Source: Saccharopolyspora gloriosae
GTDB lineage: Bacteria > Actinomycetota > Actinomycetes > Mycobacteriales > Pseudonocardiaceae
Direction of reading: 5' to 3'
Assembly: GCF_014203325.1 (NCBI RefSeq)
Contig: NZ_JACHIV010000001.1
Location: 2,109,501-2,173,500 of the forward strand
Length of the DNA: 64,000 nt
Shown: in pieces, positions 1,267 to 40,083 of the stretch
Numbering within the stretch: the first letter of the stretch is position 1
Layout of the letters: the number at the start of each line of letters is the position of its first letter
The notes under the pieces: generated by a model
Databases searched by the model: none
Told to the model about the DNA's origin: nothing
Seen by the model: the letters and a program-made list of their open reading frames with translations, nothing else
Made by a program: the position numbers and the translations under genes

Positions 1267-1458
1267 CTTGTCTTCGAGCTCGTTCTGCTTGGTGGGGCGG
1301 GTGGCGGAACCTCAGCGGCCTTCTCGCTGCGGGATCGATTTCTTATGTAGGCCCCTACACGGCGAAATCGCTGTCCTCGCGAGAAGGCCGCTGAGAACCC
1401 GCCGCGCTGCCGGTTGCATGCGTGGTCACTGCTCAGCGGCTTCGCCGCTGACAAGACA
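1267..1458 (+). repeat. Structured dispersed repeat, copy 1 (divergent inner hairpin)
   Basis: This non-coding copy is 192 bp in forward orientation. Outer stem arms CTCAGCGGCCTTCTCGC (1311-1327) and GCGAGAAGGCCGCTGAG (1379-1395) pair perfectly over 17 bp. The inner hairpin differs in sequence from all other copies (CGATTTC 1336-1342 with GAAATCG 1364-1370; TGTAGG 1346-1351 with CCTACA 1354-1359) yet is still a hairpin. The terminal hairpin TCAGCGGC-TTC-GCCGCTGA is at 1433-1451. The ends carry TGTCTT (1269-1274) and AAGACA (1453-1458). Unlike the other copies, its left end faces the start of a minus-strand gene (transketolase) and its right end lies 28 nt past the MHS transporter stop. Confidence 0.9.
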
Positions 1459-1486
1459 GAGATCACGATCAACCCGCGCGACCGAC

Positions 1487-2785
1487 TCAGGCCGGAACGC
1501 GGTCCGGCTCGGTGAGCTTCGCGGGGGCGGTCTCGGCGGTGAACGCGGCGGCGACGGTGGAGATCACGCCCAGCAGCACGAACAGCAGCGCGGGCCCGAT
1601 CCAGCCCATACCGCCGTAGAGCGCGGTCGCCAGGAACGGCAGCAGTCCCGCCACCATCGACGCGCCGTTGTAGCCGAGCGAAATCCCCGAGGAACGGACG
1701 TCGCGGGGGAACTGCTCGGAGAACCACGACGACTCCACCGCGAAGATCGGGTCGTGGCTCAGCAGCAGCCCCAGCGACACCGCGACGACCACGGCGATGC
1801 CCGCGCCGGTGTTGACCAGCAGGAACATCGGGACGCCGAAGGCGATGGTGAACACCGCACCCAGCAGGAACACCGGCTTGCGCCCGATCCGGTCCGACAG
1901 CGCGCCGAACAGCAGGTGGCTCAGCAGTCCCAGCGCGGAACCGACGATGGTGCCGATCAGCACGTTCTGCTTGTCGGTCAGCCCGGCGAGCACCACGTAG
2001 GAGAGCATGAAGCTGGTGGTGATGTAGTAGCCGCCGGTCTCCGCCAGCCGCAGCGCCACGATCTTGAGGATGGCCCGCCAGTCGCGGCGCAGCACCTCCA
2101 GCGCCGGGGCCTTGTGGATCTCGCCGCGGTCCTTCATCGCGGTGAAGTCCGGCGACTCGGAGACCTTCATCCGGATGAACATGCCCGCGCCGACCATCAC
2201 GATCGACAGCAGGAACGGCACCCGCCACACCCAGTCGCCCTCGAACACGGCCTCCGAAGCCAGGAACGCGCCGTTGGCCAGCAGCAGCCCGGCGGGGATA
2301 CCGATCTGCGGGACCGCGCCGAACAAGCCCCGCTTGCGTGCGGGCGCGTGCTCCACCGACATCAGCACCGCGCCGCCCCATTCGGCGCCGAACCCGATGC
2401 CCTGCACGATGCGCAGCAGGATCAGCAGCACCGGAGCCAGCAGCCCGGCCTGCGCGTAGGTGGGCAGCACGCCGATCAGCACCGTGCCCAAGCCCATGAT
2501 CGCCAGCGACCACATCAGCACCGTCTTGCGTCCCAGCCGGTCGCCGTAGTGCCCGGCGAGGTATCCGCCCAGCGGGCGGAAGAAGAAGCCCACGGCGAGC
2601 GTGGCGAACGAGGCCAGCACGCCCAGGAGTTCGTTGCCGGTGTGGAAGAACACCGACCCGAAGTACGCCGCGGAAGCGGTGCCGTAGATGAAGAAGTCGT
2701 AGCTCTCGACCGCGGTGCCGATCATCGACGCGACCGACACCTTCGTCGGGTCGTCGCGCCGGGCGGCGGTGGGCGCAGCGGACAT
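1487..2785 (-). CDS. MFS transporter, metabolite:H+ symporter (MHS) family
   Basis: A 432-residue inner-membrane transporter with about 12 predicted membrane segments. SYDFFIYGTASAAYFGSVFF in TM1 and FFFRPLGGYLAGHYGDRLGR, the cytoplasmic loop 2-3 signature with RPLGG, are typical of the MHS branch (ShiA, KgtP, ProP), which imports small organic acids and polar metabolites with protons. AAAGGAG sits 5 nt before the ATG. It lies between the dehydrogenase and the transketolase genes on the same strand and is the probable uptake system for the substrate of this locus. The family is secure; the substrate is unknown. Confidence 0.93.
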   Translation of the reverse strand: MSAAPTAARRDDPTKVSVASMIGTAVESYDFFIYGTASAAYFGSVFFHTGNELLGVLASFATLAVGFFFRPLGGYLAGHYGDRLGRKTVLMWSLAIMGLGTVLIGVLPTYAQAGLLAPVLLILLRIVQGIGFGAEWGGAVLMSVEHAPARKRGLFGAVPQIGIPAGLLLANGAFLASEAVFEGDWVWRVPFLLSIVMVGAGMFIRMKVSESPDFTAMKDRGEIHKAPALEVLRRDWRAILKIVALRLAETGGYYITTSFMLSYVVLAGLTDKQNVLIGTIVGSALGLLSHLLFGALSDRIGRKPVFLLGAVFTIAFGVPMFLLVNTGAGIAVVVAVSLGLLLSHDPIFAVESSWFSEQFPRDVRSSGISLGYNGASMVAGLLPFLATALYGGMGWIGPALLFVLLGVISTVAAAFTAETAPAKLTEPDRVPA

Positions 2786-2860
2786 GTCTGCTCCTTTGCA
2801 GCGACCGCCGGGGCCGGATGACCGGGCGGCGGGATTCCCGCGATGTGCGGGGAGGTTCGG

Positions 2861-3727
2861 TCAGGCGGAGGTGTAGGTCTCGATCACCCGGGAGTCGTCG
2901 CGGGCGCCCAATCCGGCGTCGGCGGCGCGTTCGTAGCGCTCCCGCGCGAGGTCCAGCAGCGGGGTGTCGGCATCGGCCTGGCGGGCGGCGTCGGCGACGA
3001 GGTTGCTGTCCTTGACGAAGATGCCGATGGTGCTGGTGACCTCGACGTCGGTGCCCTGCACCATGCGCGGCCCCCGGTCGGAGAGCATCCACGACCCGGC
3101 CGCGCCGCCCTCGACCAGCGACAGCACCTGCTCGCGGTCCAGTCCGAGCTCACCGGCCAGCGACAGCGCTTCGGCCGCGGCGACGATGTGCACCGAGCAC
3201 AGGTGCTGGTTCACCACCTTGATCGACTGGCCGTCGCCGACCCGCTCGCCGACTTCGCGCACCGAGCCGAAGCAGTCCAGCACCGGGCGCGCGAACTCCA
3301 CTGTGGACCGGTTCCCGGCGGCGAACAGGGTGAGCTCACCGGTGCGGGCCCGCGCGACGCCGCCGGTGACCGGCACGTCCAGCACCAGCGCTCCGGCCGC
3401 CGTGAGGCGGGCGCCCTGCTCGCGGACCGCGTCGGGGCCGACGGTGCTCATCACGATCCAGCGCTGCCCGTCCAGGTCGGCGCGGGTGAGCGCTTCGTCG
3501 ACGAGCGCGGCGAGCTGGTCGGGAGTGGCGACCATGACCACGACGAACTCCGCGCGGGGAGCCTCCGCCATCGACGCGACCGCCGGAATCCCTTGCGCCG
3601 CGGCCCATTCCCGTGCGCTCGGCGTCGGATCCACCGCCGTGGTCGTGCGGCCCGCGGCGACCAGCCTGCTCGCCATGTGCCTGCCGATGGCGCCGATTCC
3701 CACGAACACCACGTCGGGTTCGCCCAT
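2861..3727 (-). CDS. NAD(P)-dependent dehydrogenase, 3-hydroxyisobutyrate/6-phosphogluconate dehydrogenase superfamily
   Basis: The 288-residue protein has an N-terminal Rossmann motif VFVGIGAIGRHMASRL (normally GxGxxG), the substrate motif DVPVTGGVARA (usual DAPVSGG) and the catalytic-lysine segment GDGQSIKVVNQ. These define beta-hydroxyacid dehydrogenases such as 3-hydroxyisobutyrate, tartronate-semialdehyde or 2-hydroxy-3-oxopropionate reductases. The C-terminal all-alpha dimerisation domain follows. A strong GGAGG lies 7 nt before the ATG. It is the second gene of the operon led by the GntR regulator, and likely oxidises or reduces an intermediate made from the imported substrate. Confidence 0.9.
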   Translation of the reverse strand: MGEPDVVFVGIGAIGRHMASRLVAAGRTTTAVDPTPSAREWAAAQGIPAVASMAEAPRAEFVVVMVATPDQLAALVDEALTRADLDGQRWIVMSTVGPDAVREQGARLTAAGALVLDVPVTGGVARARTGELTLFAAGNRSTVEFARPVLDCFGSVREVGERVGDGQSIKVVNQHLCSVHIVAAAEALSLAGELGLDREQVLSLVEGGAAGSWMLSDRGPRMVQGTDVEVTSTIGIFVKDSNLVADAARQADADTPLLDLARERYERAADAGLGARDDSRVIETYTSA

Positions 3728-3837
3728 GAGTCAACCTCCTGCTCCGGCCCGTTTCCGGGCAGCACGCGTCAGCGCCCGGTCGTGCGGGCGCGCATTCCTG
3801 GAGTTCCGGTCCCGGCGGTCGGCCGGGGTGGGTGCGG

Positions 3838-4536
3838 TCAGGCCTCGCCGGTCAGCGAGGACCACACCTCGAAGTGGTGGCGCATCGCCGAGCGAGCGCC
3901 TTCGCCGTCGCGGTTCTCGACGGCGTCGACGATTCCGTAGTGGACGGTGTCGATGACGCGGTTCTCGCCCGGCCGCAGCGGTTCCCGCTCGACGGCGATG
4001 CGGCGGCGGTCCACGACCTCGTCGCGCAGCACGTGGCTGAGCCCGTCGTGCAGCAACGTGAAGATCGGGTTGTTCACCACGGTGCACAGGTGGCGGTGGA
4101 AGTCCAGGTCCGCTTCCAGCGCGCGTTCGTCCTCACCTGCCGCGCTGGCGCGCACCATCTCGTCCACCAGCCCGCGCAGCACGTCCACGTCGTCGGCCGT
4201 CGCCAGGCGGGCGGCGGCCTCCGTCATCGAGATCTCCAGCATCTCGCGCGCCGAGCGGAACTGGCCGCCGCCGAGCTGGCCCAGCTCGCTGGAGAGGTCG
4301 AAGTACAGCTGGATGAAGCTCGAGTCCGGCACGCCCAGGTAGGAACCCCGGCCTTGGGTGCGGGTCAGGAAGCCCAGCATCTCCAGCATCGACAGCTGCT
4401 CGCGCAGCGTGCCGCGGCTGATGTCGAGGGAGGCGACCAGTTCCCGTTCCGTGGGCAGGCGCAGCAGGTCCGTGCCCGGCTCCGGCGTCGCCTGTTCGGC
4501 CAGGCTGCGCACCAGGAACGACAGATCCACACCCAC
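3838..4536 (-). CDS. FadR-type GntR transcriptional regulator (FCD domain)
   Basis: A 232-residue regulator with an N-terminal winged helix (LPTERELVASLDISRGTLREQL) and a C-terminal all-helical FCD ligand domain (DLDFHRHLCTVVNNPIF carries the Asp/His that usually bind metal and an organic acid). I take the GTG at 4536, because AAAGGAGG lies 5 nt before it; the ATG at 4560 falls inside a palindromic operator. The gene heads the transketolase/MHS operon and is divergent from the GMC oxidoreductase. Two TTGGTnnnACC sites upstream suggest that it represses itself and the divergent gene until an acid ligand appears. Confidence 0.92.
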   Translation of the reverse strand: MGVDLSFLVRSLAEQATPEPGTDLLRLPTERELVASLDISRGTLREQLSMLEMLGFLTRTQGRGSYLGVPDSSFIQLYFDLSSELGQLGGGQFRSAREMLEISMTEAAARLATADDVDVLRGLVDEMVRASAAGEDERALEADLDFHRHLCTVVNNPIFTLLHDGLSHVLRDEVVDRRRIAVEREPLRPGENRVIDTVHYGIVDAVENRDGEGARSAMRHHFEVWSSLTGEA

Positions 4537-4547
4537 GGAATCCTCCT

Positions 4548-4614
4548 TTGGTAAAACCAATGTGGCGTACGTTAAGCGGCGGCTACCGAGGTGTCAACGC
4601 TTTGGTTAGACCTT
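4548..4614. promoter_or_regulatory. Two GntR/FadR-type operators
   Basis: TTGGTAAAACCAA (4548-4560) is a palindrome with a 3-nt centre, the same arrangement as PdhR/LldR sites (TTGGTnnnACCAA). It directly abuts the ribosome site of the GntR gene. A second, weaker site TTGGTTAGACCTT lies at 4602-4614, centred 54 bp away (about five helical turns). Both lie between the GntR gene and the divergent GMC oxidoreductase, as expected for autoregulation plus control of the neighbour. Assignment to this GntR protein is inference. Confidence 0.7.
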
Positions 4615-4790
4615 TGCCGCGTTTCCTTGGCTTGCGGACGTGGGCGGGGCGGACTGAAGAGGCTTCGCCGGAGGCCGATGCTGTGACGTGACGCACAATG
4701 GGTTGAGCATGCCGTTGGGGCACGGGTTGTTCTGCTCCGTGCGGCGACCGATCCGATCGGTCGGCCAGGCGGCACGACGGAGGGGACCGG

Positions 4791-6323
4791 ATGTACGACA
4801 CCATCATCATCGGCGCCGGATCGGCGGGGGCCGCGCTCGCGGCCCGGCTGACCGAGGACGAGCAGCGGCGGGTGCTGGTGCTGGAAGCGGGCCCGGACTA
4901 CCGCTCCGCCGAGACGCCGCCGGAGATCCAGGGCGTCGAACCGGGCAAGCACCGCCTCGTCGAACAGCTGGCGCACTCCCACACCTTCCCGCGGCTGCAG
5001 GCGTCGAGGTCCGCCGTGCAGGAACCGGCGAGCTACCCGCGCGGGCGCGGCGTCGGCGGGAGCTCCGCCGTGAACGGGCTGTTCGCGATCCGGCCCACCG
5101 TGGAGGACCTCGACGGCTGGGCGGCGAACGGCTGCACCGGGTGGAGCCACCGCGAGGTGCTACCGCTGCTGCGGAAGCTGGAGGACGACCAGGACTTCGG
5201 CACCGAGGCCCACCACGGCGCCGACGGCCCGATCCCGGTGCTGCGGCCGCGTCGCGAGGACTTCGCCACCGTCGACTCCGCCCTGGATCAGGTCACCGAA
5301 CGCATGGGGCACCCGTGGGCGCCCGACCACAACGCGCCCGGCGCGACCGGGGTGTCGCCCTACGCCTACAACGGCAGCGGCGGGCGCCGGGTCTCCACCA
5401 ACGACGCCTACCTGGAACCGGCCCGCGAACGGCCCGGCCTGCACGTCGTGGGCGGCGCGCTGGTCGACCGGATCCTGATCGGCGGCGGGCGCGCGACGGG
5501 GGTGCGGGCGATCGTCGACGGCGAGGTCACCGAGTTCCACGCCGACGAGGTCGTGGTCTCGGCCGGCGCGGTGCACTCCCCGGCGATCCTGCAGCGCTCC
5601 GGGATCGGTCCGGCCGCGGAGCTGCGTGAACTGGGCATCGAGCCCGTGGTGGACTTGCCCGTGGGGCGCGGGTTGCAGGACCACGCGGCGATGATGCTGG
5701 TCCTCGGCCTGCACGAACCGCCGGACTACCGCGGACTGCCGGCGCGCGGGCAGCTGTTCCTGCGCTTCACCACCGGAGTCGGGGAGGACGTCAACGACGG
5801 TGTGATCGCGACTCCGGGCGCGCTGGGCGAGGGAATCCCGGTCGCCGGGATCGTCGGCTGGAACAACCGGGCGAGCTCGACCGGCCGGGTGCGGCTGACC
5901 TCCACGGACCCGTCGATCGACCCGGCGGTGGAGCTGAACCTGCTCGCCGATTCCGTGGACCTGCGCCGGTTCCGCGTCGTCGTCGACGAGCTGCGCGAGA
6001 TCGCCGCCCAGCCGGAACTGCAGAAGATCTCCGCCGGGATGGGGCTGGGCACGGCCATGGTCCCGCCGGAGACGGCCATGTCCGCCGCGGAGTTCGCCGA
6101 GTTCGCCCTGGCCAACGTCATCGACACCGCGCACGCCTCCGGCACCTGCCGGATGGGCGCGCCGGGAGAACCGGACGTCGTGGTGGACCCGGACGGCCGG
6201 GTGCAGGGCGTCGAAGGGCTGCGGGTGGCCGACGCGAGCGTGTTCCCGTGGGTGCCGCGCGCCAACCCGCACCTGACCGCCGTGCTCGTCGGGGAGAAGA
6301 TCGCCGCCGCGATGCGGGGCTGA
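4791..6323 (+). CDS. GMC-family FAD-dependent oxidoreductase (choline dehydrogenase-like)
   Basis: A 510-residue flavoprotein that oxidises an alcohol group. The N-terminal ADP-binding motif is IIIGAGSAGAALAARL, followed by LEAGPDYR. PRGRGVGGSSAVNG matches GMC signature 1 and VVVSAGAVHSPAILQRSGIG signature 2. The C-terminus has HASGTCRMG and then NPHLT, which holds the catalytic His and Asn/His pair. GGAGGGGACCGG precedes the ATG. It is divergent from the GntR gene and probably under its control, so it likely oxidises a polyol or amino alcohol in the same pathway. Its stop codon abuts the stop of the converging hydroxyacid oxidase with no gap (TGATCA, 6321-6326). Confidence 0.93.
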   Translation: MYDTIIIGAGSAGAALAARLTEDEQRRVLVLEAGPDYRSAETPPEIQGVEPGKHRLVEQLAHSHTFPRLQASRSAVQEPASYPRGRGVGGSSAVNGLFAIRPTVEDLDGWAANGCTGWSHREVLPLLRKLEDDQDFGTEAHHGADGPIPVLRPRREDFATVDSALDQVTERMGHPWAPDHNAPGATGVSPYAYNGSGGRRVSTNDAYLEPARERPGLHVVGGALVDRILIGGGRATGVRAIVDGEVTEFHADEVVVSAGAVHSPAILQRSGIGPAAELRELGIEPVVDLPVGRGLQDHAAMMLVLGLHEPPDYRGLPARGQLFLRFTTGVGEDVNDGVIATPGALGEGIPVAGIVGWNNRASSTGRVRLTSTDPSIDPAVELNLLADSVDLRRFRVVVDELREIAAQPELQKISAGMGLGTAMVPPETAMSAAEFAEFALANVIDTAHASGTCRMGAPGEPDVVVDPDGRVQGVEGLRVADASVFPWVPRANPHLTAVLVGEKIAAAMRG

Positions 6324-25288: not shown

Positions 25289-26455
25289 ATGATCTCCCAG
25301 CACTCTGAAATCGAAATCGGCGGCATCGGTGCCGTGACCGGCTACGGCTGGGGACGCGAGGCCCTGTGGGAGGGGCTGGCGGCCTCCGAGCTCGCCGCCT
25401 CGCTCGTCGACGGGCACGGGCCCGATCAGGACCGGCCCGCCTGGGTGGCGCGGGTGCCCGAGGGCGGCGACCCGGCCGACGGGCCGAGCCGCTTCGCCAG
25501 GTCGATGCGCGCCGCGGCCCGCGAAGCGATCAGCGACGCCGAGGACCGGGGATGGACACCGGGGCGGCGCGTGGGGCTCCTGCACGCGGTGGTGCTCGGT
25601 GAAGTGGACCTGTGGCGGGAGTTCTACCAGGCCCGCGAAGGCCGGGTGACGATCCGCGAGTACCTGGCCCTGATGCCGTCCACGCCCATGTCGACGTTCA
25701 TGAAGGAGTTCGGCTTCCACGGGCCCGCCATGAACGTCTCCGCGATGTGCGCCTCCGGCAACGCCGGGCTGCTCACCGCGAAGGCCTGGCTGGACGCGGG
25801 CATCGTCGACGACGTGGTGTTCGTGGCCACCGACCTGTCGGCGAGCCCGGAGAACCTGCTGCACTTCGAGCGCCTCGGCGTCACGATCACCGACACCGAG
25901 CCGCTGGACGCGTGCCGCCCGTTCCAGGAGGGCAGCCGTGGCTTCATCATGGGCGAGGCCTCCGTCGGCATGGTGCTCTCGCGCGGCTTGAGCACCCCGT
26001 ACGCGCAGGTGCTCGGCGGGGCGATGTCGCACGACGCCCACCACGTCACCTCGATCGAACCGAGCCTGACCGAGGTGACGGGCTGCGTCGCCGACGCCCT
26101 GGACAACTCCGGGGTGAAGGGCGGTGACATCCGCTACCTCAACGCGCACGGACCGGGCACCGCGCAGTGCGACCGCGCCGAGGCGCGGTTCTGCGAGGAC
26201 CTGCTGGCGGCGGAGACCGAGATCTACTCGGTGAAGCCGCTGGTCGGGCACTGCCAGGGCGCCGCGTCGGCGGTCGAGGTCGCCGTCGCCGCGCTCGGCT
26301 ACCGGCACGGGTTCATCCCGGCCCCGCCACGGCGGGCACCGGGCAACCCGCGGCTGCTAGACGGGCCAACCCCGCTGACCGGAGGGCTCACCTTGAAGTC
26401 CTCCATCGGCATGGGCGGCCACAACTCGGCGGTCGTCCTGGCACCCCCGCAGTGA
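25289..26455 (+). CDS. Stand-alone beta-ketoacyl synthase (thiolase-fold condensing enzyme)
   Basis: This 388-residue enzyme has a full Cys-His-His triad: Cys154 in NVSAMCASGNAG, His287 in LNAHGPGTAQCDRAE and His321 in SVKPLVGHCQGAAS, with the conserved Lys316. The second His motif reads GHCQGAA instead of GHTLGAAG, and the protein is shorter than FabF (about 410). No ACP, ketoreductase, acyltransferase or other fatty-acid/polyketide gene is nearby, so this is an orphan. AAAGGG precedes the ATG by 8 nt; a strong terminator hairpin follows 25 nt after the stop, so it is probably monocistronic. It may condense with an ACP encoded elsewhere. Confidence 0.85.
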   Translation: MISQHSEIEIGGIGAVTGYGWGREALWEGLAASELAASLVDGHGPDQDRPAWVARVPEGGDPADGPSRFARSMRAAAREAISDAEDRGWTPGRRVGLLHAVVLGEVDLWREFYQAREGRVTIREYLALMPSTPMSTFMKEFGFHGPAMNVSAMCASGNAGLLTAKAWLDAGIVDDVVFVATDLSASPENLLHFERLGVTITDTEPLDACRPFQEGSRGFIMGEASVGMVLSRGLSTPYAQVLGGAMSHDAHHVTSIEPSLTEVTGCVADALDNSGVKGGDIRYLNAHGPGTAQCDRAEARFCEDLLAAETEIYSVKPLVGHCQGAASAVEVAVAALGYRHGFIPAPPRRAPGNPRLLDGPTPLTGGLTLKSSIGMGGHNSAVVLAPPQ

Positions 26456-26480
26456 GCAACCCGGCTCCGAGGTGAACAGC

Positions 26481-26513
26481 GGTGCCCGGAACTCCACCGG
26501 AGTTCCGGGCACC
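26481..26513 (+). terminator. Terminator hairpin after the ketosynthase gene
   Basis: GGTGCCCGGAACTCC (26481-26495) and GGAGTTCCGGGCACC (26499-26513) form a perfect 15-bp stem with loop ACC, 25 nt past the stop codon. No U-tract, as usual for actinobacterial terminators. Confidence 0.75.
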
Positions 26514-26559
26514 CACCGGAGACCAGCCTCGGTTGAGGCTGACGACCGCTCTTGATCTG

Positions 26560-26750
26560 TGTCCTGTCAGCGGCGGAGCCGCTGAGCAGTGACCACGCAC
26601 GCAGATGGACCACCCGCGGGTTCTCAGGTGTCTTCTCGCGAGGACAGCTTTTTCCCTCGTGGCGGAGCCACTTGGGAAAAAGATCCCGCAGCGAGAAGAC
26701 ACCTGAGGTTCCGCCACCCGACCCCTACGCAGACCGAGGCCAGAGAGGTC
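26560..26750 (-). repeat. Structured dispersed repeat, copy 2
   Basis: This 191-bp copy is in reverse orientation. Outer stem arms CTCAGGTGTCTTCTCGC (26623-26639) and GCGAGAAGACACCTGAG (26691-26707) pair perfectly. The inner hairpin uses TTTTTCCC (26649-26656) and GGGAAAAA (26674-26681) plus GTGGC/GCCAC. The terminal hairpin TCAGCGGC-GGA-GCCGCTGA is at 26567-26585. Its forward start lies 6 nt beyond the stop of the deaminase gene, so in that transcript it is the 3' UTR. Confidence 0.92.
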
Positions 26751-26756
26751 AGTCCC

Positions 26757-27731
26757 TCACGGAGTCCAGGCTTCGACCTCCGCGAGGAAGGCTGCTTTGC
26801 CGTCCTCGTCGAGGAAGGAGGCGCGGAAGGAGTTCGCCGCCAGCGTCCGCAGCTGCTCGGGGGTCAAGCCAAGCTCGCGGCGCACCGCGTCGAAGTTCTC
26901 GTCGGCGTAGCCGCCGAAGTAGGCCGGATCGTCGGAGTTCACCGTCACCAGCAGCCCGTGCTCCAGCAGCCGCGGCAAGGTGTGGTGCCCCAGCTCCGCG
27001 AACGCTCCCAGCCGCACGTTCGACAGCGGGCACACCGTCAGCGGGATCTGCTCCCGTCGCAGCCGTTCGACCAGCTCCGGGTCCTCCAGGGCGCGGATCC
27101 CGTGGTCGATGCGCTGCACCCCGAGCAGGTCCAGCGCTTCCCGCACGTACTCCGGCGGTCCTTCTTCGCCGGCGTGCGCGACCGCGCGCAGCCCGAGCTC
27201 GTGGGCTCGCCGGAACACCTCGGTGAACTTCGACGGCGGGTGCCCGACTTCGGCGGAGTCCAGGCCGACGCCGACGATCCGGTCCAAGAACGGCTCGGCG
27301 AGGCGCAGCGCTTCGGCGGCGGACTCGGCGGATTCGTCGCGCAGGAAGCACAGGATGAGCGAGGCCGACACCTCGCTGTCGTCGAGCGCCGCGCAGAGCC
27401 CGCCGATCACGGTCTCCATCGCGACGCCGCGCTTGAGGTGCGCCTGCGGGTCGAAGAAGATCTCCGCGTGCCGCACGCCGTGGGCGGCGCAGCGGTCCAG
27501 GTAGGCGGCGGCCAGGTCGCGGAAGTCCGCGGCGGTGCGCAGCACGGCCATGTTCGCGTAGTAGATGTCCAGGAACGACTGCAGGTCGGCGAACTCGTAC
27601 TTCGCCCGCAGGTCGGCGACCGACTCGTGCGGCAGCGCGATGTCGTTGCGCCGCGCCAGCGCGAAGACCATCTCGGGTTCGAGGGTGCCTTCGATGTGCA
27701 CGTGCAGTTCGGCCTTGGGCGGAGTGTTCAT
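26757..27731 (-). CDS. add: Adenosine deaminase-family protein, probably adenine deaminase (Aah1-like)
   Basis: The 324-residue protein has the zinc amidohydrolase motifs of the ADA family: AELHVHIEGTLEP (HxH), HAGEEG, RIDHGIRALED and VTVNSDDPAYF (the Asp pair). Two segments, AEIFFDPQAHLKRGV and GLDSAEVGHPPSKF, resemble the fungal/bacterial adenine deaminase branch, where SEVGNPPSKF is characteristic. It deaminates adenine to hypoxanthine or adenosine to inosine in purine salvage. The symbol add is given for the family; ade-type specificity is my preferred reading. A structured repeat begins 6 nt after its stop codon. Confidence 0.9.
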   Translation of the reverse strand: MNTPPKAELHVHIEGTLEPEMVFALARRNDIALPHESVADLRAKYEFADLQSFLDIYYANMAVLRTAADFRDLAAAYLDRCAAHGVRHAEIFFDPQAHLKRGVAMETVIGGLCAALDDSEVSASLILCFLRDESAESAAEALRLAEPFLDRIVGVGLDSAEVGHPPSKFTEVFRRAHELGLRAVAHAGEEGPPEYVREALDLLGVQRIDHGIRALEDPELVERLRREQIPLTVCPLSNVRLGAFAELGHHTLPRLLEHGLLVTVNSDDPAYFGGYADENFDAVRRELGLTPEQLRTLAANSFRASFLDEDGKAAFLAEVEAWTP

Positions 27732-29168: not shown

Positions 29169-30023
29169 ATGACGACGACACTCGGAACCCTGCTCACCGC
29201 GATCGTCACCCCGTTCGACGACGAGCTGAAAGTCGATGAGGACGCCTTCGTCGCGCTGCTGCACCACGTCATCGACAGCGGTTCCGACGGCATCGTCGTC
29301 TGCGGCACCACCGGCGAGGCGGCGACGCTCACCAACGAGGAGCACCTGCGCCTCGTCGAGATCGCCTGCGCCGAGCGCCCCGAAGGCGTCACGATCCTCG
29401 GCTCCACCGGTTCCAACGACACCGCCCAGGCGTGCGCGATGACCGAGCGGGTCACCGAGCTCGGGGTGGACGGCGTGCTGTCGGTGACCCCGTACTACAA
29501 CCGCCCGAACCGGCGCGGCCTGGTGCGGCACTACGCCGAGATCGCGAACGCCACCGACAAGCCGATCGTGCTCTACAACATCCCGGCCCGGACCGCGACG
29601 GACATGCCCAACGACCTGCTCGCCGAGCTCGCGCAGATCGAGCGGGTGGACTACGTCAAGCAGGCCAACGACGACAACCTGGCCCTGGTGGACGGGCTCG
29701 GCGTCTACGCGGGCAACAACGAGACGTTCGCCCGCACGCTGGACATGGGCGGTGCGGGCGGCATCGTCGTGGCCAGCCACATCGCGGGCCCGCAGATGCG
29801 GCGGATGGTCGAGGAGCCGGAGCACCGCGCGGAGCTCGACGCCTCGCTCAAGGACCTGTACTCGGCGCTGTCGGTGACGACGAACCCGATCCCGGTGAAG
29901 GCCGCGCTGAACCTGCTCGGACACCCCGTCGGAGGCCCGCGCCTGCCGCTGGCGGAGGCCGACGAGGCCGAGATCGAGGTGGTCCGCGCAGCCCTCGTCT
30001 CCGGCGGCTTCCTGGCCGCCTGA
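29169..30023 (+). CDS. dapA: 4-hydroxy-tetrahydrodipicolinate synthase family protein
   Basis: This 284-residue protein is of the DapA/N-acetylneuraminate lyase family. Key residues are present: VCGTTGEAATL, VTPYYNRPNRRG (active-site Tyr), LYNIPARTA and the Schiff-base lysine in VDYVKQANDDN. DapA condenses pyruvate with aspartate semialdehyde at the first committed step to lysine. I start at ATG 29169 with GGAAGG upstream; an ATG at 29151 is less likely. No other lysine gene is adjacent, so it may be a second dapA copy. It converges on an operon with an amino-acid-type oxygenase, methyltransferase and carnitine-acyltransferase homologue. Confidence 0.9.
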   Translation: MTTTLGTLLTAIVTPFDDELKVDEDAFVALLHHVIDSGSDGIVVCGTTGEAATLTNEEHLRLVEIACAERPEGVTILGSTGSNDTAQACAMTERVTELGVDGVLSVTPYYNRPNRRGLVRHYAEIANATDKPIVLYNIPARTATDMPNDLLAELAQIERVDYVKQANDDNLALVDGLGVYAGNNETFARTLDMGGAGGIVVASHIAGPQMRRMVEEPEHRAELDASLKDLYSALSVTTNPIPVKAALNLLGHPVGGPRLPLAEADEAEIEVVRAALVSGGFLAA

Positions 30024-30036
30024 CCTACCGCGAACC

Positions 30037-30075
30037 GAGCGAGCCCCGGACGACCACGTCGTCCGGGGCTCGCTC
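30037..30075 (+). terminator. Terminator hairpin after dapA
   Basis: GAGCGAGCCCCGGACGAC (30037-30054) pairs with GTCGTCCGGGGCTCGCTC (30058-30075): 18 bp, loop CAC, 13 nt after the stop codon. Confidence 0.8.
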
Positions 30076-30155
30076 CGTCCAGAACAACCGCCTCGCGCGC
30101 CTGCTCGCGCCGAGCGGAGCAAGCGATTACCTCAGCGTCTGCGTTTCTTGATCCT

Positions 30156-30345
30156 TGTCTTGTCAGCGGCGGAGCCGCTGAGCAGCGACCCAGCACGCAG
30201 CCGCACCACCCGCGGGTTCTCAGCTGCTTCCTCGCGAGGACGGCTTTTTCCCTCGTGGCGGAGCCACTCGGGAAAAAGATCCCGCAGTGAGGAAGCAGCT
30301 GAGGTTCCGCCACCCGACCACCCGAGCAACAAGACCAAAGACAGG
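30156..30345 (-). repeat. Structured dispersed repeat, copy 3
   Basis: This 190-bp copy is in reverse orientation. Outer arms are CTCAGCTGCTTCCTCGC (30219-30235) and GTGAGGAAGCAGCTGAG (30287-30303): 16 Watson-Crick pairs and one G.T on the plus strand. Inner hairpin TTTTTCCC (30245-30252) with GGGAAAAA (30270-30277). Terminal hairpin at 30163-30181. Forward end CCTGTCTTTG (30336-30345) lies 4 nt beyond the stop of the acyltransferase gene; the other end is separated from dapA by that gene's own terminator. Confidence 0.92.
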
Positions 30346-30349
30346 CTCC

Positions 30350-32173
30350 TCAGCCCTCGGACTTCTCCGTGATCAGCAGGTCCTCCAGCTCGCGCATCGC
30401 GGTGCGGAGGTTGTCGGCGAACGCGTACATGCCGCCCGAGACCGGCAGCGGCGTGCTCAGGTAGATGTGCAGCCGGTCGGGCAGCAGCACGTAGGCCACG
30501 CCGATGCACTTCCCGCTCGTGGAGCCGAATCCGAAGTACTGGATGTTCGTCGACGGCGCCGAGCTGGTGCTCAGGTAGTCGTCGCGCATGATGTTCCAGC
30601 CCGGCGTGTCGTAGAGCGCCAGCGGTTCGGTCGCGCCCAGCTCGGCGCCGCGGCGGCGCTGGATGAGCTGCAGCTCCCACAGGTGCTGCTCCGGCGCGTC
30701 CCCGGCCTGGCACTGCTTGGCCCGCGCCACGTGCTTGTCGGCCGCCGCCCGGAACGCCGCGGTGCGCTTCGCCGCGTCCGCAGCCGGATCGTCCATCGCG
30801 GTCACGAACTCGACGATCTCCGGGGTCACCACCCGCATCGCCTCGGTGCGGCCGTGCCGCCACTGCCGGGTCGCGATCGACTCGTAGGTGGCGCCGATGC
30901 CCTTGGTGCGCTTGTGGGCGAGCTGGTAGGCCATCTGCACGAACGCGTCCGGGGACATGCCCAGCCGCTTCGCCCGGTCCGAGCCGAAGTCCTCGAACGC
31001 GAGGATCTTGTTGGAGGTCTCGGCGGCGAAGGTGGCGAACGCGCCCGCCGCGGCACGCACCTCGGCCCGCAGCGCGTCGTCGAGGGTGAACTCGACGCCC
31101 GCGACCTCCGGGGTGCCCTGCGAGCGCGCGCCGGAGTTCGCGGCGTGCTGCTCGGGCGCGGAGTTCAGCAGCGAGTCGACGAAGGTGAGGATCGTGGTGC
31201 CGTCCAGGCCGCAGTGCTCCACGTTGATGCCGGCCCGGCCGTCCTCGAAGACGATGAGCGACACGGCCTTGTCGAACCAGCGGTTGCCGCTGTCGCCGTG
31301 CAGCAGCTGGTCGCAGGCCTCCTGGGTGTCGGTGGGCGCGAAGTCCTCCAGGCACACGCAGAACAACGCCGATTCCACGGTGTCGAGCTCGTCGGCGTTG
31401 CCGAGGTCGAGCAGCCGCTGCCGCGTGCGGGCCCAGTCCGCGCGGGCCTTCGTGGTGAGGTTGCCGACGGCGTCGTCGACGGCGGCGCGGGAGGTTCCGG
31501 CCTTGCGGACCTCCTCCAGCCCGGCCGCCAGGTCCGCGAGGTCGTGCGGCGTGCCGTCGGGGGCGATCACGTCGAGGCGGAACAGGTTCCCGCGGAAGAA
31601 CACCACGATGTGCCGGGCGGGCGACGGCCCGGGGTGGTCGGCGGAGTACGGGGTCCGCACGGTGTCCTGCTGCTCGCCGGGAATCCTGGTGGTGGAGAAC
31701 AGGAACTTGTTCTGCTCCATCGAGGACGCCTGGCCGCGCTGGATCAGCGGCGGCAGCGACTCGTCGTCGAGGGCCTTCTTGTAGGCCACCGCACCGGCGA
31801 TGAGCCCCGCGGCGCGGTCGATCTGCCCCAGCTCGGAATCCTGGAACAGGAAGAAGAAGTTCGCGTTCAGCGCGATCCGGTCCCGCCTGCCGAGGTAGCG
31901 CGACGGCCAGAACTCGTCGAGCCAGCTGTGCGCGTCCTCGCTCGCGTCGAAGCGCTCCAGGTCGGCGTGCAGCGCGCGGGCCGGGCTCTCGGGGCGCAGG
32001 TACTCGGCGACGGCCTGCTCGGTGCGGGCGAGCTCGTCGGCGGTCAGCAGCGGTGCGCACCATTCGAGGAAGCGCGCGCAACTGTTCTCCAGCGTGGGCA
32101 CCGGCACGCGCGGCAGCCGGTCCTCGTTGCCGAAGGTTCGGGGGGACCATTGCTGTGTGTCGTTCACGGTCAT
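30350..32173 (-). CDS. Choline/carnitine O-acyltransferase family protein
   Basis: This 607-residue enzyme has the whole carnitine-acyltransferase architecture: N-terminal LPRVPVPTLENSCARFLEW, FFRGNLFRLDV, the catalytic His320 in INVEHCGLDGTT, and the C-terminal IQYFGFGSTSGKCIGVAYVL. The family moves acyl groups between CoA and a hydroxylated trimethylammonium zwitterion (carnitine) or choline. Bacterial members are uncommon. It is the last gene of an operon with a SAM methyltransferase (43-nt gap) and a Fe/2OG oxygenase, which could provide N-methylation and hydroxylation of its acceptor. Ordinary carnitine shuttling is the alternative role. A structured repeat follows 4 nt after the stop. 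Confidence 0.92.
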   Translation of the reverse strand: MTVNDTQQWSPRTFGNEDRLPRVPVPTLENSCARFLEWCAPLLTADELARTEQAVAEYLRPESPARALHADLERFDASEDAHSWLDEFWPSRYLGRRDRIALNANFFFLFQDSELGQIDRAAGLIAGAVAYKKALDDESLPPLIQRGQASSMEQNKFLFSTTRIPGEQQDTVRTPYSADHPGPSPARHIVVFFRGNLFRLDVIAPDGTPHDLADLAAGLEEVRKAGTSRAAVDDAVGNLTTKARADWARTRQRLLDLGNADELDTVESALFCVCLEDFAPTDTQEACDQLLHGDSGNRWFDKAVSLIVFEDGRAGINVEHCGLDGTTILTFVDSLLNSAPEQHAANSGARSQGTPEVAGVEFTLDDALRAEVRAAAGAFATFAAETSNKILAFEDFGSDRAKRLGMSPDAFVQMAYQLAHKRTKGIGATYESIATRQWRHGRTEAMRVVTPEIVEFVTAMDDPAADAAKRTAAFRAAADKHVARAKQCQAGDAPEQHLWELQLIQRRRGAELGATEPLALYDTPGWNIMRDDYLSTSSAPSTNIQYFGFGSTSGKCIGVAYVLLPDRLHIYLSTPLPVSGGMYAFADNLRTAMRELEDLLITEKSEG

Positions 32174-34215: not shown

Positions 34216-34226
34216 GGGAGGTCGGC

Positions 34227-35893: not shown

Positions 35894-36529
35894 ATGTCCA
35901 GAACCACGATGCCCCGAGCGTCCGGCGACGTCCCGCCGCGCGAGCAAGGGGGCCTGCGCGAGCGCAAGAAGCGCGCCACCAGGCAGGCCCTGCAGCAGGC
36001 CGCGGTCCGGTTGTTCCGGGAGCACGGCCCGGTGTCGGTCACCGTGGAGGACATCTGCGCCGCGGCGGACGTGTCCGCGCGCACCTTCTTCAACTACTTC
36101 GCCTCGAAGGAAGAGGTGCTGGTCCCCTGGGACCCGCCGACCGTCGCGAGCACCGCGCGGCGCATCGTGGACGGCCCCGCCGCGGAATCCCTGCTGAGCG
36201 TCGTGCACCGGGTGCTGGGGGAGACGATCGACACCGCGATGGCCGCGCCCACCTGGCGAGATCAGGCCGTGGTGCTGCGCGATCACCCCGAGCTGGTGAG
36301 CCGGGTGGCGCTGGCCTCGTGGGACTTGGAGCAGGCGCTGGCCGACGGGGTGGCCCGCCGCACGGGGGGCGAGCAGGAGGACCCGTACGTGCGGCAGCTG
36401 GCGGCGACCGCGGTGACGACGCTGCGGGTGGCGATCCAGTGCTGGCACCGGGCCGACCCGGACTCCGACCTGCACGACCACCTCGACTCGGCGTTCACCC
36501 GCTTGGCCGACGGCCTCCGCCCGGACTGA
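35894..36529 (+). CDS. TetR/AcrR-family transcriptional regulator
   Basis: A 211-residue regulator: RERKKRATRQALQQAAVRLF followed by VSVTVEDICAAADVSARTFFNYFASKEE, the helix-turn-helix with the TFFNYF motif typical of MftR-like TetRs. The ligand domain has no close recognisable type. ATG 35894 is preceded by CCAGG only, a weak site. It probably represses itself and the divergent YhgE-like gene through the palindrome at 35735-35769. A structured repeat starts 3 nt after its stop codon. Confidence 0.9.
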   Translation: MSRTTMPRASGDVPPREQGGLRERKKRATRQALQQAAVRLFREHGPVSVTVEDICAAADVSARTFFNYFASKEEVLVPWDPPTVASTARRIVDGPAAESLLSVVHRVLGETIDTAMAAPTWRDQAVVLRDHPELVSRVALASWDLEQALADGVARRTGGEQEDPYVRQLAATAVTTLRVAIQCWHRADPDSDLHDHLDSAFTRLADGLRPD

Positions 36530-36532
36530 TTG

Positions 36533-36723
36533 CCTGTCTTTGTTCTTGGCCTGAGTAGGGGTCGGGTGGCGGAACCTCAGGTGCTTCCTCGCTGCGGGAT
36601 CTTTTTCCCGAGTGGCTCCGCCACGAGGGAAAAAGCCGTCCTCGCGAGGAAGCACCTGAGAACCCGCGGGTCGTCGGCCTGCTTTGATGGTCACTGCTCA
36701 GCGGCTTCGCCGCTGACAGGACA
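36533..36723 (+). repeat. Structured dispersed repeat, copy 4
   Basis: This 191-bp forward copy starts 3 nt past the TetR stop codon. Outer arms CTCAGGTGCTTCCTCGC (36576-36592) and GCGAGGAAGCACCTGAG (36644-36660) pair perfectly. Inner hairpin TTTTTCCC (36602-36609) with GGGAAAAA (36627-36634), closed by GTGGC-TCC-GCCAC. Terminal hairpin TCAGCGGC-TTC-GCCGCTGA at 36698-36716. Ends: CCTGTCTTTG (36533-36542) and GACAGGACA (36715-36723). Confidence 0.93.
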
Positions 36724-37057
36724 ACGACCGCCGGCGCCGTGCGTTCGGGAAGCCGAGGTCGATGGTGCGCACCCGACGGTGCTGCGGTCTCCCCCTTCGA
36801 GAACCATGCCGGACCTGGTTCGTTCCGGCGGGATTTCGGGAGAGGTCGAACTGCCGACTTGAGCAGTTGCCTCGCCGAGTTCGCGGGTGGGTTTCGAGTC
36901 TGGTCGGGGCTGAGCAATTTCCGCGGAATTGTGGAAGTTGTCCGTGGATGGGCGGTTCGTGCATCGGGTGGGGTGGCGGGTTCGGGCGTTCGTCGTATTG
37001 TTCGTCCGTCTTATTGGCCCTTGTAGGTGATCTCTGGATACGTATGGTCACCTGATC
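36724..37057. other. 334-bp intergenic region upstream of the AftA-like gene
   Basis: No gene seen. Just before the start codon, AGGTGA (37025-37030) and TCACCT (37048-37053) form a 6-bp inverted repeat around an AT-richer centre; this could be an operator or hairpin in the leader. There is no good Shine-Dalgarno before the ATG at 37058. Confidence 0.45.
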
Positions 37058-38974
37058 ATGAGTTCGGCTGCGGGTGGCGCAGGGAATGCGCACGGGTGCT
37101 CACTTCGGATGTCGCCGGGGCGGTTGGCGGGTGAACTCCCGGTCGTCGTGGTGGTGGCCGTCGGCGTGAGTCTCGCGGTGCAGTTCCCCATCGCCCGGCT
37201 CGGGCTCAGCGTCCCCACCGAGCTCCCCGCGATCGCCGCCACCGCCTGCGCCGCGCTGCTGCTGGCGCTGCTGCTCGGCGGCGCCCGCTGGGCGGACCGG
37301 GTCCCCGCGGCGCTGCGGCTGCCCGCGGTGTGGGTGGCGCTGCCCGCGCTGGCGACCACCGTGCTGGCGTGGCCGCTGGAGCCGACGCGGCTGTACTACG
37401 GCGGCGTCTCGGTCGACCAGATGTTCCGGATGCAGTACCTGACGCGGTTCGCCGATTCGCCCGCGCTCGCCGACATGAACTACCCCGGCCTGGCGCCGTA
37501 CTACCCGGCGGGCTGGTTCTGGCTCGGAGGACGTTTCGCGGAGCTGACCGGGATGCCGGGGTGGGCCGCGTTCAAACCGTTCGCGCTGCTGACGATCGCG
37601 GTGACCGCGGGAGTCGCGTTCACGTTGTGGAGCGCCGTGGTCCGCAGGCGGATCGCCGTGCTGTGCGCGGTCGCCACCACGCTCAGCGGGTTCCTGCACG
37701 GCTTCGACGAGCCGTACGCGTGGATGTCGGTGGCGTGGCTGGTGCCGGTCGCGGTCGCGGCCTGGCACGTGCTGCGCTGCCGCGAACATCCGCACCGGGC
37801 CGCGACGGTGGGCATCGGGCTGTACCTGGGCTTCGCGGCGATCACCTACGCGCTGTACCTGGCGTTCGCGGCGATGGTGCTGGTGGTGATGGCGGCCGTG
37901 GTCGCCGCGCGGCGGCTGCGGGCGGGTGGCGCGTGGCGCCGCGTGGTCGGCGGACCGGTGCTGCGGCTCGCGGTGATCGGCGCGGTCGCGGCGGCGGTGG
38001 CGCTGCTGGTGTGGGCGCCGTTCGTGCTGGCGAAGCTGGACGGTGCCGCATCGGCCGGCGCTGCGAACCGGTACCTGCCCGCGGAGTCGGTGCCGCCGTT
38101 CCCGTTCCTCGAACCGACCTTGTTCGGCGCGTTGTGCCTGGCCGGTTTCTGCTGGCTGGTGCTGGCGTTCCGGCGCAGCGAGGCCGCGGCGGCGCTGCTG
38201 GTGCTGACGGCCTCGGTGTACGCGTGGTTCGGCTTGTCGACGCTGGCGGTGGCGGCGCAGACGACGTTGCTGGCGTTCCGGACCACGGCCGCGCTGGAGG
38301 TGCTGCTGGCGGTGGCCGGAGTGCTGGGGCTGCTCGACCTGTGGGGCTGGGCCAGCACCCGGCTGGACGCCCGGTTCCGGCGGCAGGTCGCGGCGCTCGG
38401 TCTCCTGCTGCCGCTGGCGGGTGCGGTGAGCACCGTCGAAACCGCGCTCGCGTCCACTGTGGACGAATCGGCGGCTCCGGCTTACCAGGACTACTACCCG
38501 ACGGGGGCCAACGCGCAGCGTCGAACCGACCCGGCGCTGCCCGGCTCCTGGAACGACGAGCTCACGGCCGCGCTCGGCGAGCTCACCGGCCGCGCACCTG
38601 CGGAAATCACGGTGCTCACGACCTACCACCCGATCATGTCGTTCGCCCCGTACTGGGGTTTCCAGCAGGAGACGCCGCACTACGCGAACCCGCTGTCGGC
38701 CTACGAGGACCGCGCCGCCGTGATCCGCGAGTGGGCGGCGGCGCGCGGTCCCGGCGAGCTGTCCGCGCTGCTGCGGCGCAGTCCGTTCCCCGCTCCGGAC
38801 GCGTTCCTGCTGCGCCGCGAGAGCGACGGGCTGCACCTGACGCTGTCGCACGACGCGTTCCCGCACCAGCCCAACGTCCAGGTCTACGACGTGCGGTTCG
38901 ACCCGGCGCTGTTCGACTCGCCCGCCTTCGTCCGGCGTGACGCGGGCCCGTTCGCGGTGATCGCTACGCGCTGA
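37058..38974 (+). CDS. aftA: Galactan 5-O-arabinofuranosyltransferase, AftA-like
   Basis: A 638-residue GT-C membrane glycosyltransferase with about 11-13 helices and a C-terminal extracytoplasmic domain. VSVDQMFRMQYLTRFADSPA and DMNYPGLAPYYPAGWFWLGG are characteristic of AftA, which transfers the first arabinofuranosyl residues from decaprenyl-phosphoarabinose onto galactan in arabinogalactan synthesis. It supports a mycolata/Pseudonocardiaceae-type wall. The start is uncertain because no ribosome site precedes ATG 37058; a later ATG near 37109 is possible. Confidence 0.88.
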   Translation: MSSAAGGAGNAHGCSLRMSPGRLAGELPVVVVVAVGVSLAVQFPIARLGLSVPTELPAIAATACAALLLALLLGGARWADRVPAALRLPAVWVALPALATTVLAWPLEPTRLYYGGVSVDQMFRMQYLTRFADSPALADMNYPGLAPYYPAGWFWLGGRFAELTGMPGWAAFKPFALLTIAVTAGVAFTLWSAVVRRRIAVLCAVATTLSGFLHGFDEPYAWMSVAWLVPVAVAAWHVLRCREHPHRAATVGIGLYLGFAAITYALYLAFAAMVLVVMAAVVAARRLRAGGAWRRVVGGPVLRLAVIGAVAAAVALLVWAPFVLAKLDGAASAGAANRYLPAESVPPFPFLEPTLFGALCLAGFCWLVLAFRRSEAAAALLVLTASVYAWFGLSTLAVAAQTTLLAFRTTAALEVLLAVAGVLGLLDLWGWASTRLDARFRRQVAALGLLLPLAGAVSTVETALASTVDESAAPAYQDYYPTGANAQRRTDPALPGSWNDELTAALGELTGRAPAEITVLTTYHPIMSFAPYWGFQQETPHYANPLSAYEDRAAVIREWAAARGPGELSALLRRSPFPAPDAFLLRRESDGLHLTLSHDAFPHQPNVQVYDVRFDPALFDSPAFVRRDAGPFAVIATR

Positions 38975-39020
38975 TCGTTTCGGGCGGTCCTGCCCGGGTG
39001 AGGTGAAGCGGACCCCATCA

Positions 39021-39039
39021 TCAGGTTAGCCTTGCCTCA
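39021..39039 (+). promoter_or_regulatory. IdeR/DtxR iron box
   Basis: TCAGGTTAGCCTTGCCTCA agrees at about 15 of 19 positions with the IdeR/DtxR consensus TTAGGTTAGSCTAACCTAA. It lies 28 bp before the start of the siderophore-interacting protein gene, so iron-replete IdeR should repress that gene. Confidence 0.85.
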
Positions 39040-39066
39040 GAGAACCAGTCGCGATGAGGAGAGCTG

Positions 39067-39885
39067 ATGGCTCAAGCGGGCAAGTCCAGGCCGGTCAAGC
39101 GGCTGCGAGTGCTGCGCAAGGAACAACTCACCCCGCACATGATCCGCATCGTCGCGGGCGGGGACGGGCTGCGCGCCTTCCAGGCCAACGAGTTCACCGA
39201 CGCGTACGTGAAAGTGGTCTTCCCCGTCGACGGCGTGGCCTACCCGGAGCCGTTCGACCTGGGCGTGATCAACGCCGAACTGCCCCGCGAGCAGTGGCCC
39301 AGCACCCGCACCTACACGGTGCGCCACTACGACCGGCAGGCCGGCGAGCTCACCTTGGACTTCGTCCACCACGGAGACACCGGGCTCGCCGGGCCGTGGG
39401 CGGCGAACGCCGCGCCCGGCGACGAACTGCTGCTGGCCGGACCCGGCGGGGCGTACGCGCCGGACGCCGCCGCGGACTGGCACCTGCTGGTCGGGGACGA
39501 GAGCGCGCTGCCCGCGATCGCCGCGTCCCTGGAAGCGATGCCCGCCGGAGCCCAGGTCCGGGCGTTCGTCCTGATCGACGGCGCCGAGGAGCAGCAGTCG
39601 CTGTCCACCAAGGCCGACGCGGAGGTCCGCTGGCTGCACCGCTCGTCGGGCGACGACCTCGTCGGCGCCGTGCGGGACGCGGAGTTCCCGGCCGGTGACG
39701 TGCACGCCTTCGTGCACGGCGAGGCCGGATTCGTGCGGGAGCTGCGCCGTTACCTGCTCAACGAGTGCGGAGTGGCCAAGGATCGCCTGTCGATCTCCGG
39801 CTACTGGCGCGAAGGCAAGAACGACGAGCAGTGGCGCAAGGAAAAAGCAGCCGAACGAGCAGCGGAAGAGGCCCGTCCGGCTTGA
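39067..39885 (+). CDS. Siderophore-interacting protein (SIP), FAD-dependent ferric-siderophore reductase
   Basis: The 272-residue protein is of the ViuB/SIP family. RLRVLRKEQLTPHMIRIV starts the FAD-binding barrel; PSTRTYTVRHYD is the FAD motif (RxYTxR); PWAANAAPGDELLLAGPGG and WHLLVGDESALPAIAA form the NAD(P)H part; SISGYWREGKNDEQW is the usual C-terminus. It reduces ferric siderophores in the cytosol to release iron. An iron box at 39021-39039 predicts IdeR control. A structured repeat begins 7 nt after the stop codon. No siderophore importer is adjacent. Confidence 0.93.
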   Translation: MAQAGKSRPVKRLRVLRKEQLTPHMIRIVAGGDGLRAFQANEFTDAYVKVVFPVDGVAYPEPFDLGVINAELPREQWPSTRTYTVRHYDRQAGELTLDFVHHGDTGLAGPWAANAAPGDELLLAGPGGAYAPDAAADWHLLVGDESALPAIAASLEAMPAGAQVRAFVLIDGAEEQQSLSTKADAEVRWLHRSSGDDLVGAVRDAEFPAGDVHAFVHGEAGFVRELRRYLLNECGVAKDRLSISGYWREGKNDEQWRKEKAAERAAEEARPA

Positions 39886-39892
39886 GCGGGGA

Positions 39893-40083
39893 CTGGCCCT
39901 GGGCTCGTTTTGCTCGGGTGGTCAGGTGGCGGAACCTCAGCGTTCTTCTCGCTGCGGGATCTTTTTCCCGAGTGGCTCCGCCACGAGGGAGAAAGCCGTC
40001 CTCGCGAGAAGGGCGCTGAGAACCCGCTGCGGTGCCGGTTGCTCTGGTGGTCGCTGCTCAGCGGCTTCGCCGCTGACAGGAAA
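39893..40083 (+). repeat. Structured dispersed repeat, copy 5 (with G.U wobbles)
   Basis: This 191-bp forward copy lies 7 nt past the siderophore-interacting protein stop. Outer arms CTCAGCGTTCTTCTCGC (39936-39952) and GCGAGAAGGGCGCTGAG (40004-40020) pair with two adjacent T.G wobbles. The inner pair TTTTTCCC (39962-39969) with GGGAGAAA also uses one T.G. All three become G.U if the plus strand is transcribed. Terminal hairpin TCAGCGGC-TTC-GCCGCTGA at 40058-40076. Confidence 0.92.

What the first reader, a model, noticed from the sequence alone, without database searches (positions are those of the whole stretch)
1267..40083. Family of five ~191-bp structured, non-coding dispersed repeats
Five copies (1267-1458 +, 26560-26750 -, 30156-30345 -, 36533-36723 +, 39893-40083 +) of 190-192 bp share the same architecture: an end with TGTCTT, a GGTGGCGGAACC block, a long nested stem-loop (17-bp outer stem, conserved asymmetric internal loop TGCGGGATC/GTCCTC, inner hairpin), a variable linker of about 30-40 nt, and a terminal TCAGCGGC/GCCGCTGA hairpin ending near AAGACA. 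None encodes a plausible protein. Five in 64 kb implies hundreds if the genome is uniform. I do not recognise it as a described REP, MITE or RNA family. It could be a mobile MITE with 6-bp terminal repeats (TGTCTT...AAGACA) or a structured RNA element.
Basis: partly seen in the sequence, partly recalled or inferred. Interest (0 to 1): 0.88.

Follow-up and report, generated by a model that had tools for sequence, protein, structure and literature searches.

The report
Mobile structured repeats behind stop codons
A bacterium and many of its relatives carry a short, non-coding, hairpin-forming DNA element (hundreds of copies in this genome) that appears to move around the genome, usually sits right behind the end of a gene, and keeps a matched stem although the stem's sequence differs from copy to copy.

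Summary
In detail: the five copies are real, and the genome has 187 exact copies of a 16-base core (0 in the reversed control). A covariance model finds the core in 66 of 249 genomes and 14 of 46 genera of the family, own genome included; Rfam has no match. The stem covaries (385 double-change cells against 124 shuffled). In 45 of 63 copies a co-oriented stop codon lies 15-45 nt before the core; random placement gives 2.8%. Of 30 orthologous stop codons in a sister species, 14 hold a copy by the model, 3 more by eye, 13 show none; in the 10 pairs compared the stem arms differ. Twelve pairs of inverted-repeat ends exist in this genome; they match the ends of an IS5-family insertion sequence in three related genera. 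In 7 of 19 such copies the target trinucleotide is the stop codon. Best reading: a MITE-like element with a conserved structured core, moved at least partly by an IS5-type transposase. Against it: most copies show no end pair, and no close relative of that transposase was found in this genome.

The parts
1267..1458 (+). copy c1: core hairpin 1297-1402, terminal hairpin 1430-1451; lies between two minus-strand genes (called 367-1254 and 1487-2785), so this copy is not behind a co-oriented stop
26560..26750 (-). copy c2: core hairpin 26616-26721, terminal hairpin 26567-26588; begins 6 nt behind the stop of minus gene 26757-27731; the orthologous place in G001 holds a different copy
30156..30345 (-). 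copy c3: core hairpin 30212-30317, terminal hairpin 30163-30184; begins 4 nt behind the stop of minus gene 30350-32173; no copy there in G001; another copy there in G003
30328..30346 (-). degenerate 5' inverted-repeat end of c3 (3 mismatches to GCCTGTCTTTGATCTYGGC)
   Evidence: G000:2139828-2139846
36533..36723 (+). copy c4: core hairpin 36562-36667, terminal hairpin 36695-36716; begins 3 nt behind the stop of plus gene 35909-36529; no copy there in G001, G002 and G003
36532..36550 (+). 5' inverted-repeat end of c4 (1 mismatch)
   Evidence: G000:2146032-2146050
39893..40083 (+). copy c5: core hairpin 39922-40027, terminal hairpin 40055-40076; begins 7 nt behind the stop of plus gene 39109-39885; no copy there in G001 and G002

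Best explanation
These are copies of a non-autonomous, MITE-like mobile element with a conserved two-hairpin core. At least one form of it is mobilised in trans by an IS5-family transposase that recognises the 17-22 bp end CYGCCTGTCTTTGATCTTG and duplicates a TNA trinucleotide. A TGA stop codon (TCA on the other strand) is such a target, and inserting there regenerates the stop, so the gene is unharmed. That would explain why copies sit immediately behind stop codons. Once there the element would be carried as a hairpin-rich 3' untranslated region of the upstream gene. Recombination between copies swaps halves, ends and the inner hairpin. Shown: copy number, taxonomic spread, covariation, position behind stop codons, orthologous sites that lack the element or hold a different copy, ends shared with an IS, TNA duplications at the IS and at some element copies. 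Inferred: that the transposase acts on the element, and that the stop-codon bias comes from target choice plus tolerance. Not shown: transcription, and any function of the core.
For: Copies and spread: 187 exact cores; 150 model hits, the cap; 66/249 genomes and 14/46 genera, own included. Turnover: no copy at c3, c4 and c5 in G001, which is 94-96% identical over the aligned blocks. Of 30 further orthologous stop codons in G001, 14 have a model match, all co-oriented behind the stop; 3 more look like derivatives by eye; 13 have no model match. In the 10 pairs whose arms could be read, the left arm differs in 9 and only the right in 1. Ends: 80 TIR-like sites against 0 in the reversed control; 12 inward pairs 65-246 bp apart. 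IS: at least 10 pairs about 958 bp apart in G240; a 964-bp IS with 22-bp perfect ends and a 277-aa transposase matching NF033580 (IS5) at 199.5 bits, cut-off 110, PF13340 and PF01609. Relatives in G018 (7 loci, 64% aa) and G017 (3 loci, 77-78% aa). Duplications read by eye: TNA, exact in 10 of 11 IS loci. In 7 of 19 TIR-bounded elements the trinucleotide at one end is the abutting gene's stop codon (3 of these 7 with an exact duplication). Position: 45 of 63 own copies; 36 of 47 loci from other genomes, sister species included.
Against: Most copies have no detectable pair of inverted repeats: end pairing is at control level in G223, G189, G176, G018, G005 and G072, and in this genome 5' and 3' type I ends do not go together (4 both, 10 only 5', 8 only 3', 45 neither; p = 0.26). 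No close relative of the transposase was found in this genome: its 5 PF13340 hits are about 31% identical over 111 aa and have other ends. Duplications are exact in only 5 of 19 TIR-bounded elements. In other genomes copies also follow TAG (6) and TAA (3) stops, and TAG is not a TNA target. The orientation bias is not explained by a near-symmetric target.
Confidence: 0.6

Rival explanations
1. The core is a selected cis-acting 3'-UTR module (terminator, mRNA-end stabiliser or processing signal). Positions behind stop codons are kept because it works there, and it spreads mainly by recombination between copies; inverted-repeat ends are occasional passengers.
For: Tight distance and sense orientation behind stops in many genomes; covariation across genera with a nearly invariant internal loop; half-chimeras and end mixtures; a T-rich spacer between stop and core (30% T against 12.8% in post-stop DNA without an element); 14 of 30 orthologous stops occupied in G001 by the model against 5 copies per 51 called genes in the window.
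Against: 13 of 30 orthologous stops have no copy in a close relative, so no given site seems to need it; antisense folds more stably in 59 of 63; no expression data.
Confidence: 0.25
2. A REP/BIME-like palindromic repeat moved by a RAYT (Y1) transposase acting on single-stranded hairpins.
For: Hundreds of intergenic palindromic copies, proximity to stop codons, compensatory stems. Four element carriers do have a Y1 domain: G004, G005, G010 and G017.
Against: No Y1 transposase domain was found in G000, G001, G002, G003, G018 or G019, all of which carry the element; element-free G012, G030 and G035 do have one.
Confidence: 0.04
3. Integron-attC-like folded recombination sites (sense orientation behind stop codons, conserved fold with variable stems, asymmetric extra-helical bases) used by a tyrosine recombinase.
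For: Analogy in placement and in structure conserved over sequence. The attC features are recalled, not tested.
Against: The element is present or absent while its upstream gene stays, so genes are not cassettes; no integrase was searched for.
Confidence: 0.04

Closest known systems
RUP of Streptococcus pneumoniae (thought to be mobilised by IS630-Spn1; passages of review PMC2229807)
   Same: 107 bp, 108 intergenic copies, ends like those of an IS, inserts into other mobile elements
   Different: TA target and IS630 ends; here IS5-type ends with TNA on some copies, a larger covarying nested stem, several end types on one core, and the matching IS was not found in this genome
ERIC/IRU of enterobacteria (passages of PMC2229807)
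   Same: 127-bp structured repeat between genes, reported as co-transcribed with an orientation-dependent effect on mRNA
   Different: sequence not compared here; tight tethering behind stop codons and copy-specific stem arms here; co-transcription not tested here
Correia/NEMIS of Neisseria (passages of PMC2229807)
   Same: 105-155 bp MITE-like repeat, RNA stem proposed to be cut by RNase III
   Different: TA at the ends; here TNA and IS5-type ends on some copies only, G+C-rich
REP/BIME with RAYT (start of abstract of PMC2817692 seen)
   Same: more than 100 palindromic extragenic copies per genome; closeness to stop codons (recalled)
   Different: no Y1 domain found in G000-G003; much longer unit
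IS5-family insertion sequences, e.g. the plasmid SCP2 gene annotated as putative Tn5714 transposase (62% aa)
   Same: transposase family and DDE domain; TNA duplication read at the IS copies here
   Different: the element has no transposase and its interior shows no similarity to the IS interior at E up to 1e-3

Membership tests
MITE | short, non-coding, many dispersed copies | tested here: met
   about 190-246 bp, 187 exact cores; 1 of 64 copies overlapped a called gene
MITE | terminal inverted repeats | tested here: inconclusive
   12 inward pairs in this genome; absent or undetectable in most copies
MITE | target-site duplication | tested here: inconclusive
   exact TNA in 5 of 19 TIR-bounded elements; 10 of 11 for the matching IS, by eye
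MITE | ends shared with an autonomous transposon | tested here: met
   IS5-family IS in G240, G017 and G018 with the same or nearly the same ends; not found in the window's own genome
MITE | orthologous sites without the element | tested here: met
   c3, c4, c5 and 13 of 30 further sites in G001
MITE | transposition in trans observed | not testable with these tools
   needs a bench assay
REP/RAYT | Y1 transposase in the genome | tested here: not met
   0 hits in G000-G003
Any Rfam family | score at or above gathering threshold | tested here: not met
   0 matches in the window; sub-threshold matches only, miRNA-type for copy c4 and one snoRNA-type away from the element in L194
Integron attC | IntI-type integrase and R'/R'' core sites | not tested
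   no search made

The most novel reading that the evidence does not exclude
The two-hairpin core itself, not the transposon ends, is the mobile and selected unit: a structured element that is placed in sense just behind stop codons of any kind by a mechanism that reads its fold (or its transcript). Its stem arms are free to diversify as long as they stay complementary, and it borrows ends of different transposons in different lineages.
Probability: 0.22. Interest if true: 0.85.

Novelty: new variant of a known kind. Interest (0 to 1): 0.6.

Why it matters
If right, stop codons are a safe harbour for a mobile element, and many gene 3' ends in one bacterial family (by inference Pseudonocardiaceae, a family with antibiotic producers, recalled) are rewritten between close species by a structured insert. 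The copy-specific but mostly complementary stem arms are a natural covariation experiment, and orthologous genes with and without the element make effects on mRNA ends directly testable.

Tried and rejected
IS5 transposases of the own genome as the mover: 5 PF13340 and 5 PF01609 hits, but no type I end pair lies beside them; an inverted repeat CTAAGAGCGCGTCTC flanks two. RAYT: absent from G000-G003. Plasmid and phage relatives of copy c4: none. A 40-nt end sequence against plasmids gave, in the 15 rows shown of 23, only relaxase or mobilisation genes, taken as chance. General inverted-repeat search at the ends of six relatives (40 copies) and 58 own copies: control level on average; the high scores include three true type I copies, L017, L006 and L028. 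A second kind of end ('type III', TTTCRGAATGA) was seen by eye, but both ends occurred together in only 1 of 67 own copies and 2 of 7 from G004/G005, so it is only suggestive. Sense-strand RNA stability: not supported, antisense energy lower in 59 of 63, so the conserved G-U pairs are not used as an argument. Strand bias along the chromosome: 39+/19- against 39+/53- either side of about 3.2 Mb among 150 model hits (Fisher p about 0.004, not adjusted for trying many cuts); gene orientation could explain it. Literature searches listed no report of this element (open-access library only; listings and abstract starts seen, passages read only of PMC2229807).
Full report
Observation. The five copies are present as stated and far above chance. 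Copy c4 folds with z = -7.45 against shuffles. In the own genome (one contig, 6,825,909 bp; window = 2,109,501-2,173,500) the 16-base core occurs 187 times exactly, 0 times in the reversed control. A covariance model R1 of the core (58 copies) reports 150 hits, its cap. These lie in every half-megabase bin of the chromosome.

Spread. The 16 genomes of other families have no match. The only record hit by an exact long pattern in the named collection is Saccharopolyspora sp. NFXS83 (records near the window's genome may be left out there). Its copy is up to about 90% identical to own copies, and that genus is in Pseudonocardiaceae. That the window's family is Pseudonocardiaceae is therefore an inference. 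No plasmid or phage in the collections matches copy c4, and no Rfam family reaches threshold (weak hits).

Structure. Within the genome, 137 cells change on both sides of a pair against 45 in shuffles. Across 74 copies from other genomes it is 385 against 124, at most 72 with slid partners, and 95.2% of cells are paired. That alignment (A4) was fitted to the model, which leans towards the structure. The bases around the internal loop hardly vary, while about 8 positions of the outer stem vary but mostly stay complementary. Among 91 own copies there are 27 different left 9-mers, with 0.54 mismatches per 13-bp arm against 3.5 when arms are shuffled among copies; 69 of 91 have none. Four copies look like half-chimeras (L019, L039, L044, L054); two other rows with many mismatches, L015 and L150, are effects of a small deletion or insertion. 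Two of 75 have the inner hairpin inverted, and 8 of 63 typed copies mix 5' and 3' flank types. Recombination between copies is the simplest account.

Position. With a gene finder trained on the window, 63 own copies have both neighbours called; one more overlapped a gene call and was dropped. In 45 of 63 the upstream gene is co-oriented with its stop 15-45 nt before the core; the matching null, a random 5' end within 13 nt of a co-oriented stop in the window's gaps, is 2.8%. The sample is best BLAST hits, first copies on the contig, best model hits and TIR sites, not a random draw. In 47 loci from other genomes, sister species included, 40 have a co-oriented upstream gene and 36 of these have its stop within -4 to 45 nt (27 TGA, 6 TAG, 3 TAA); one short locus was left out.

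Mobility. In the region of c2-c5, G001 (94-96% identical blocks) lacks c3, c4 and c5 and has a different copy at c2; G003 has another copy near c3. I then took 30 of 41 eligible own copies, chosen for a stop close upstream. All 30 orthologous stops were found in G001. R1 matches in 14, all co-oriented just behind the stop; sites 11, 22 and 27 look like derivatives by eye; 13 have no model match, one of these (site 2) with a terminal-hairpin-like stretch 208 nt in. In the 10 pairs whose arms could be read, the left arm differs in 9 and only the right in 1. In G002, 27 of 30 stretches were fetched; 12 have a model match, of which 7 are co-oriented just behind the same stop and 5 are reversed or farther off. 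Occupancy of the same stop is more frequent than the window's 5 copies per 51 called genes would suggest; no formal test was made. Nested insertions of one element into another are visible by eye.

Mover. Some copies have ends CYGCCTGTCTTTGATCTTG: 80 sites at up to 3 mismatches, 0 in control, and 12 inward pairs of 65-246 bp. In G240 the end occurs 98 times forward and 102 reverse, and at least 10 pairs in the truncated list lie about 958 bp apart. One of these, read out, is a 964-bp IS with 22-bp perfect ends encoding an IS5-family transposase. Relatives lie in G018 and G017; TNA duplications, read by eye, are exact in 10 of 11 loci. The IS sits inside the element's stem base (CTCAG/CTGAG) in G240 and G017. 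Of 19 TIR-bounded elements (14 own, 5 from relatives), 5 have exact duplications, and in 7 the trinucleotide at one end is the stop codon of the abutting gene, 3 of them with an exact duplication.

Against. The end pair is missing from most copies and from whole genomes, and no close relative of the transposase was found in the own genome. So the IS5 route is supported for a subset only. Stops other than TGA and the sense orientation are not explained by it. Nothing here shows transcription, termination or any benefit to the host.

Known kinds. By what it works like, the nearest are RUP, ERIC and Correia/NEMIS (passages of a review, PMC2229807) and REP/RAYT (start of abstract only, PMC2817692). 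RAYT membership fails for this genome. MITE membership is met on size, copy number, sites without the element and a partner IS, and is inconclusive on ends and duplications. Eight literature searches listed no report of it in an open-access library.

Noticed in passing
G000 sites orthologous to G001 stops without a copy: Within 12 nt before the stop codon, G001-to-G000 differences are 10 C>T against 1 T>C at the 13 sites; further upstream 3 against 7. Small numbers, direction assumed; could hint at single-strand exposure at insertion or at selection for a T-rich 3' end.
   Followed up: partly
L032, L070, L079, L055 and other type II copies, 3' of the core: Type II copies continue into a chain of small TTCG-loop hairpins (GGCACGGCCTTCGGCCGC and similar units), in L079 as a near-tandem array.
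   Followed up: no
L291, L288, L280, L292: The IS5-family IS is nested in the CTCAG/CTGAG base of the element's big stem, so the element itself serves as a landing site.
   Followed up: partly
L006 about 25 nt behind its 3' end: A run of more than 20 G; possibly slippage or an assembly artefact.
   Followed up: no
genus g50 (G054, G087, G114, G134: 1 core each; G150 3, G165 2, G179 4): These genomes carry only one to four cores; their context was not read and might show a founder or non-mobile form.
   Followed up: no
window 26455-26560 and 30023-30156: c2 and c3 lie beside ordinary GC-rich inverted repeats between convergent genes, likely native terminators that the relatives share.
   Followed up: no
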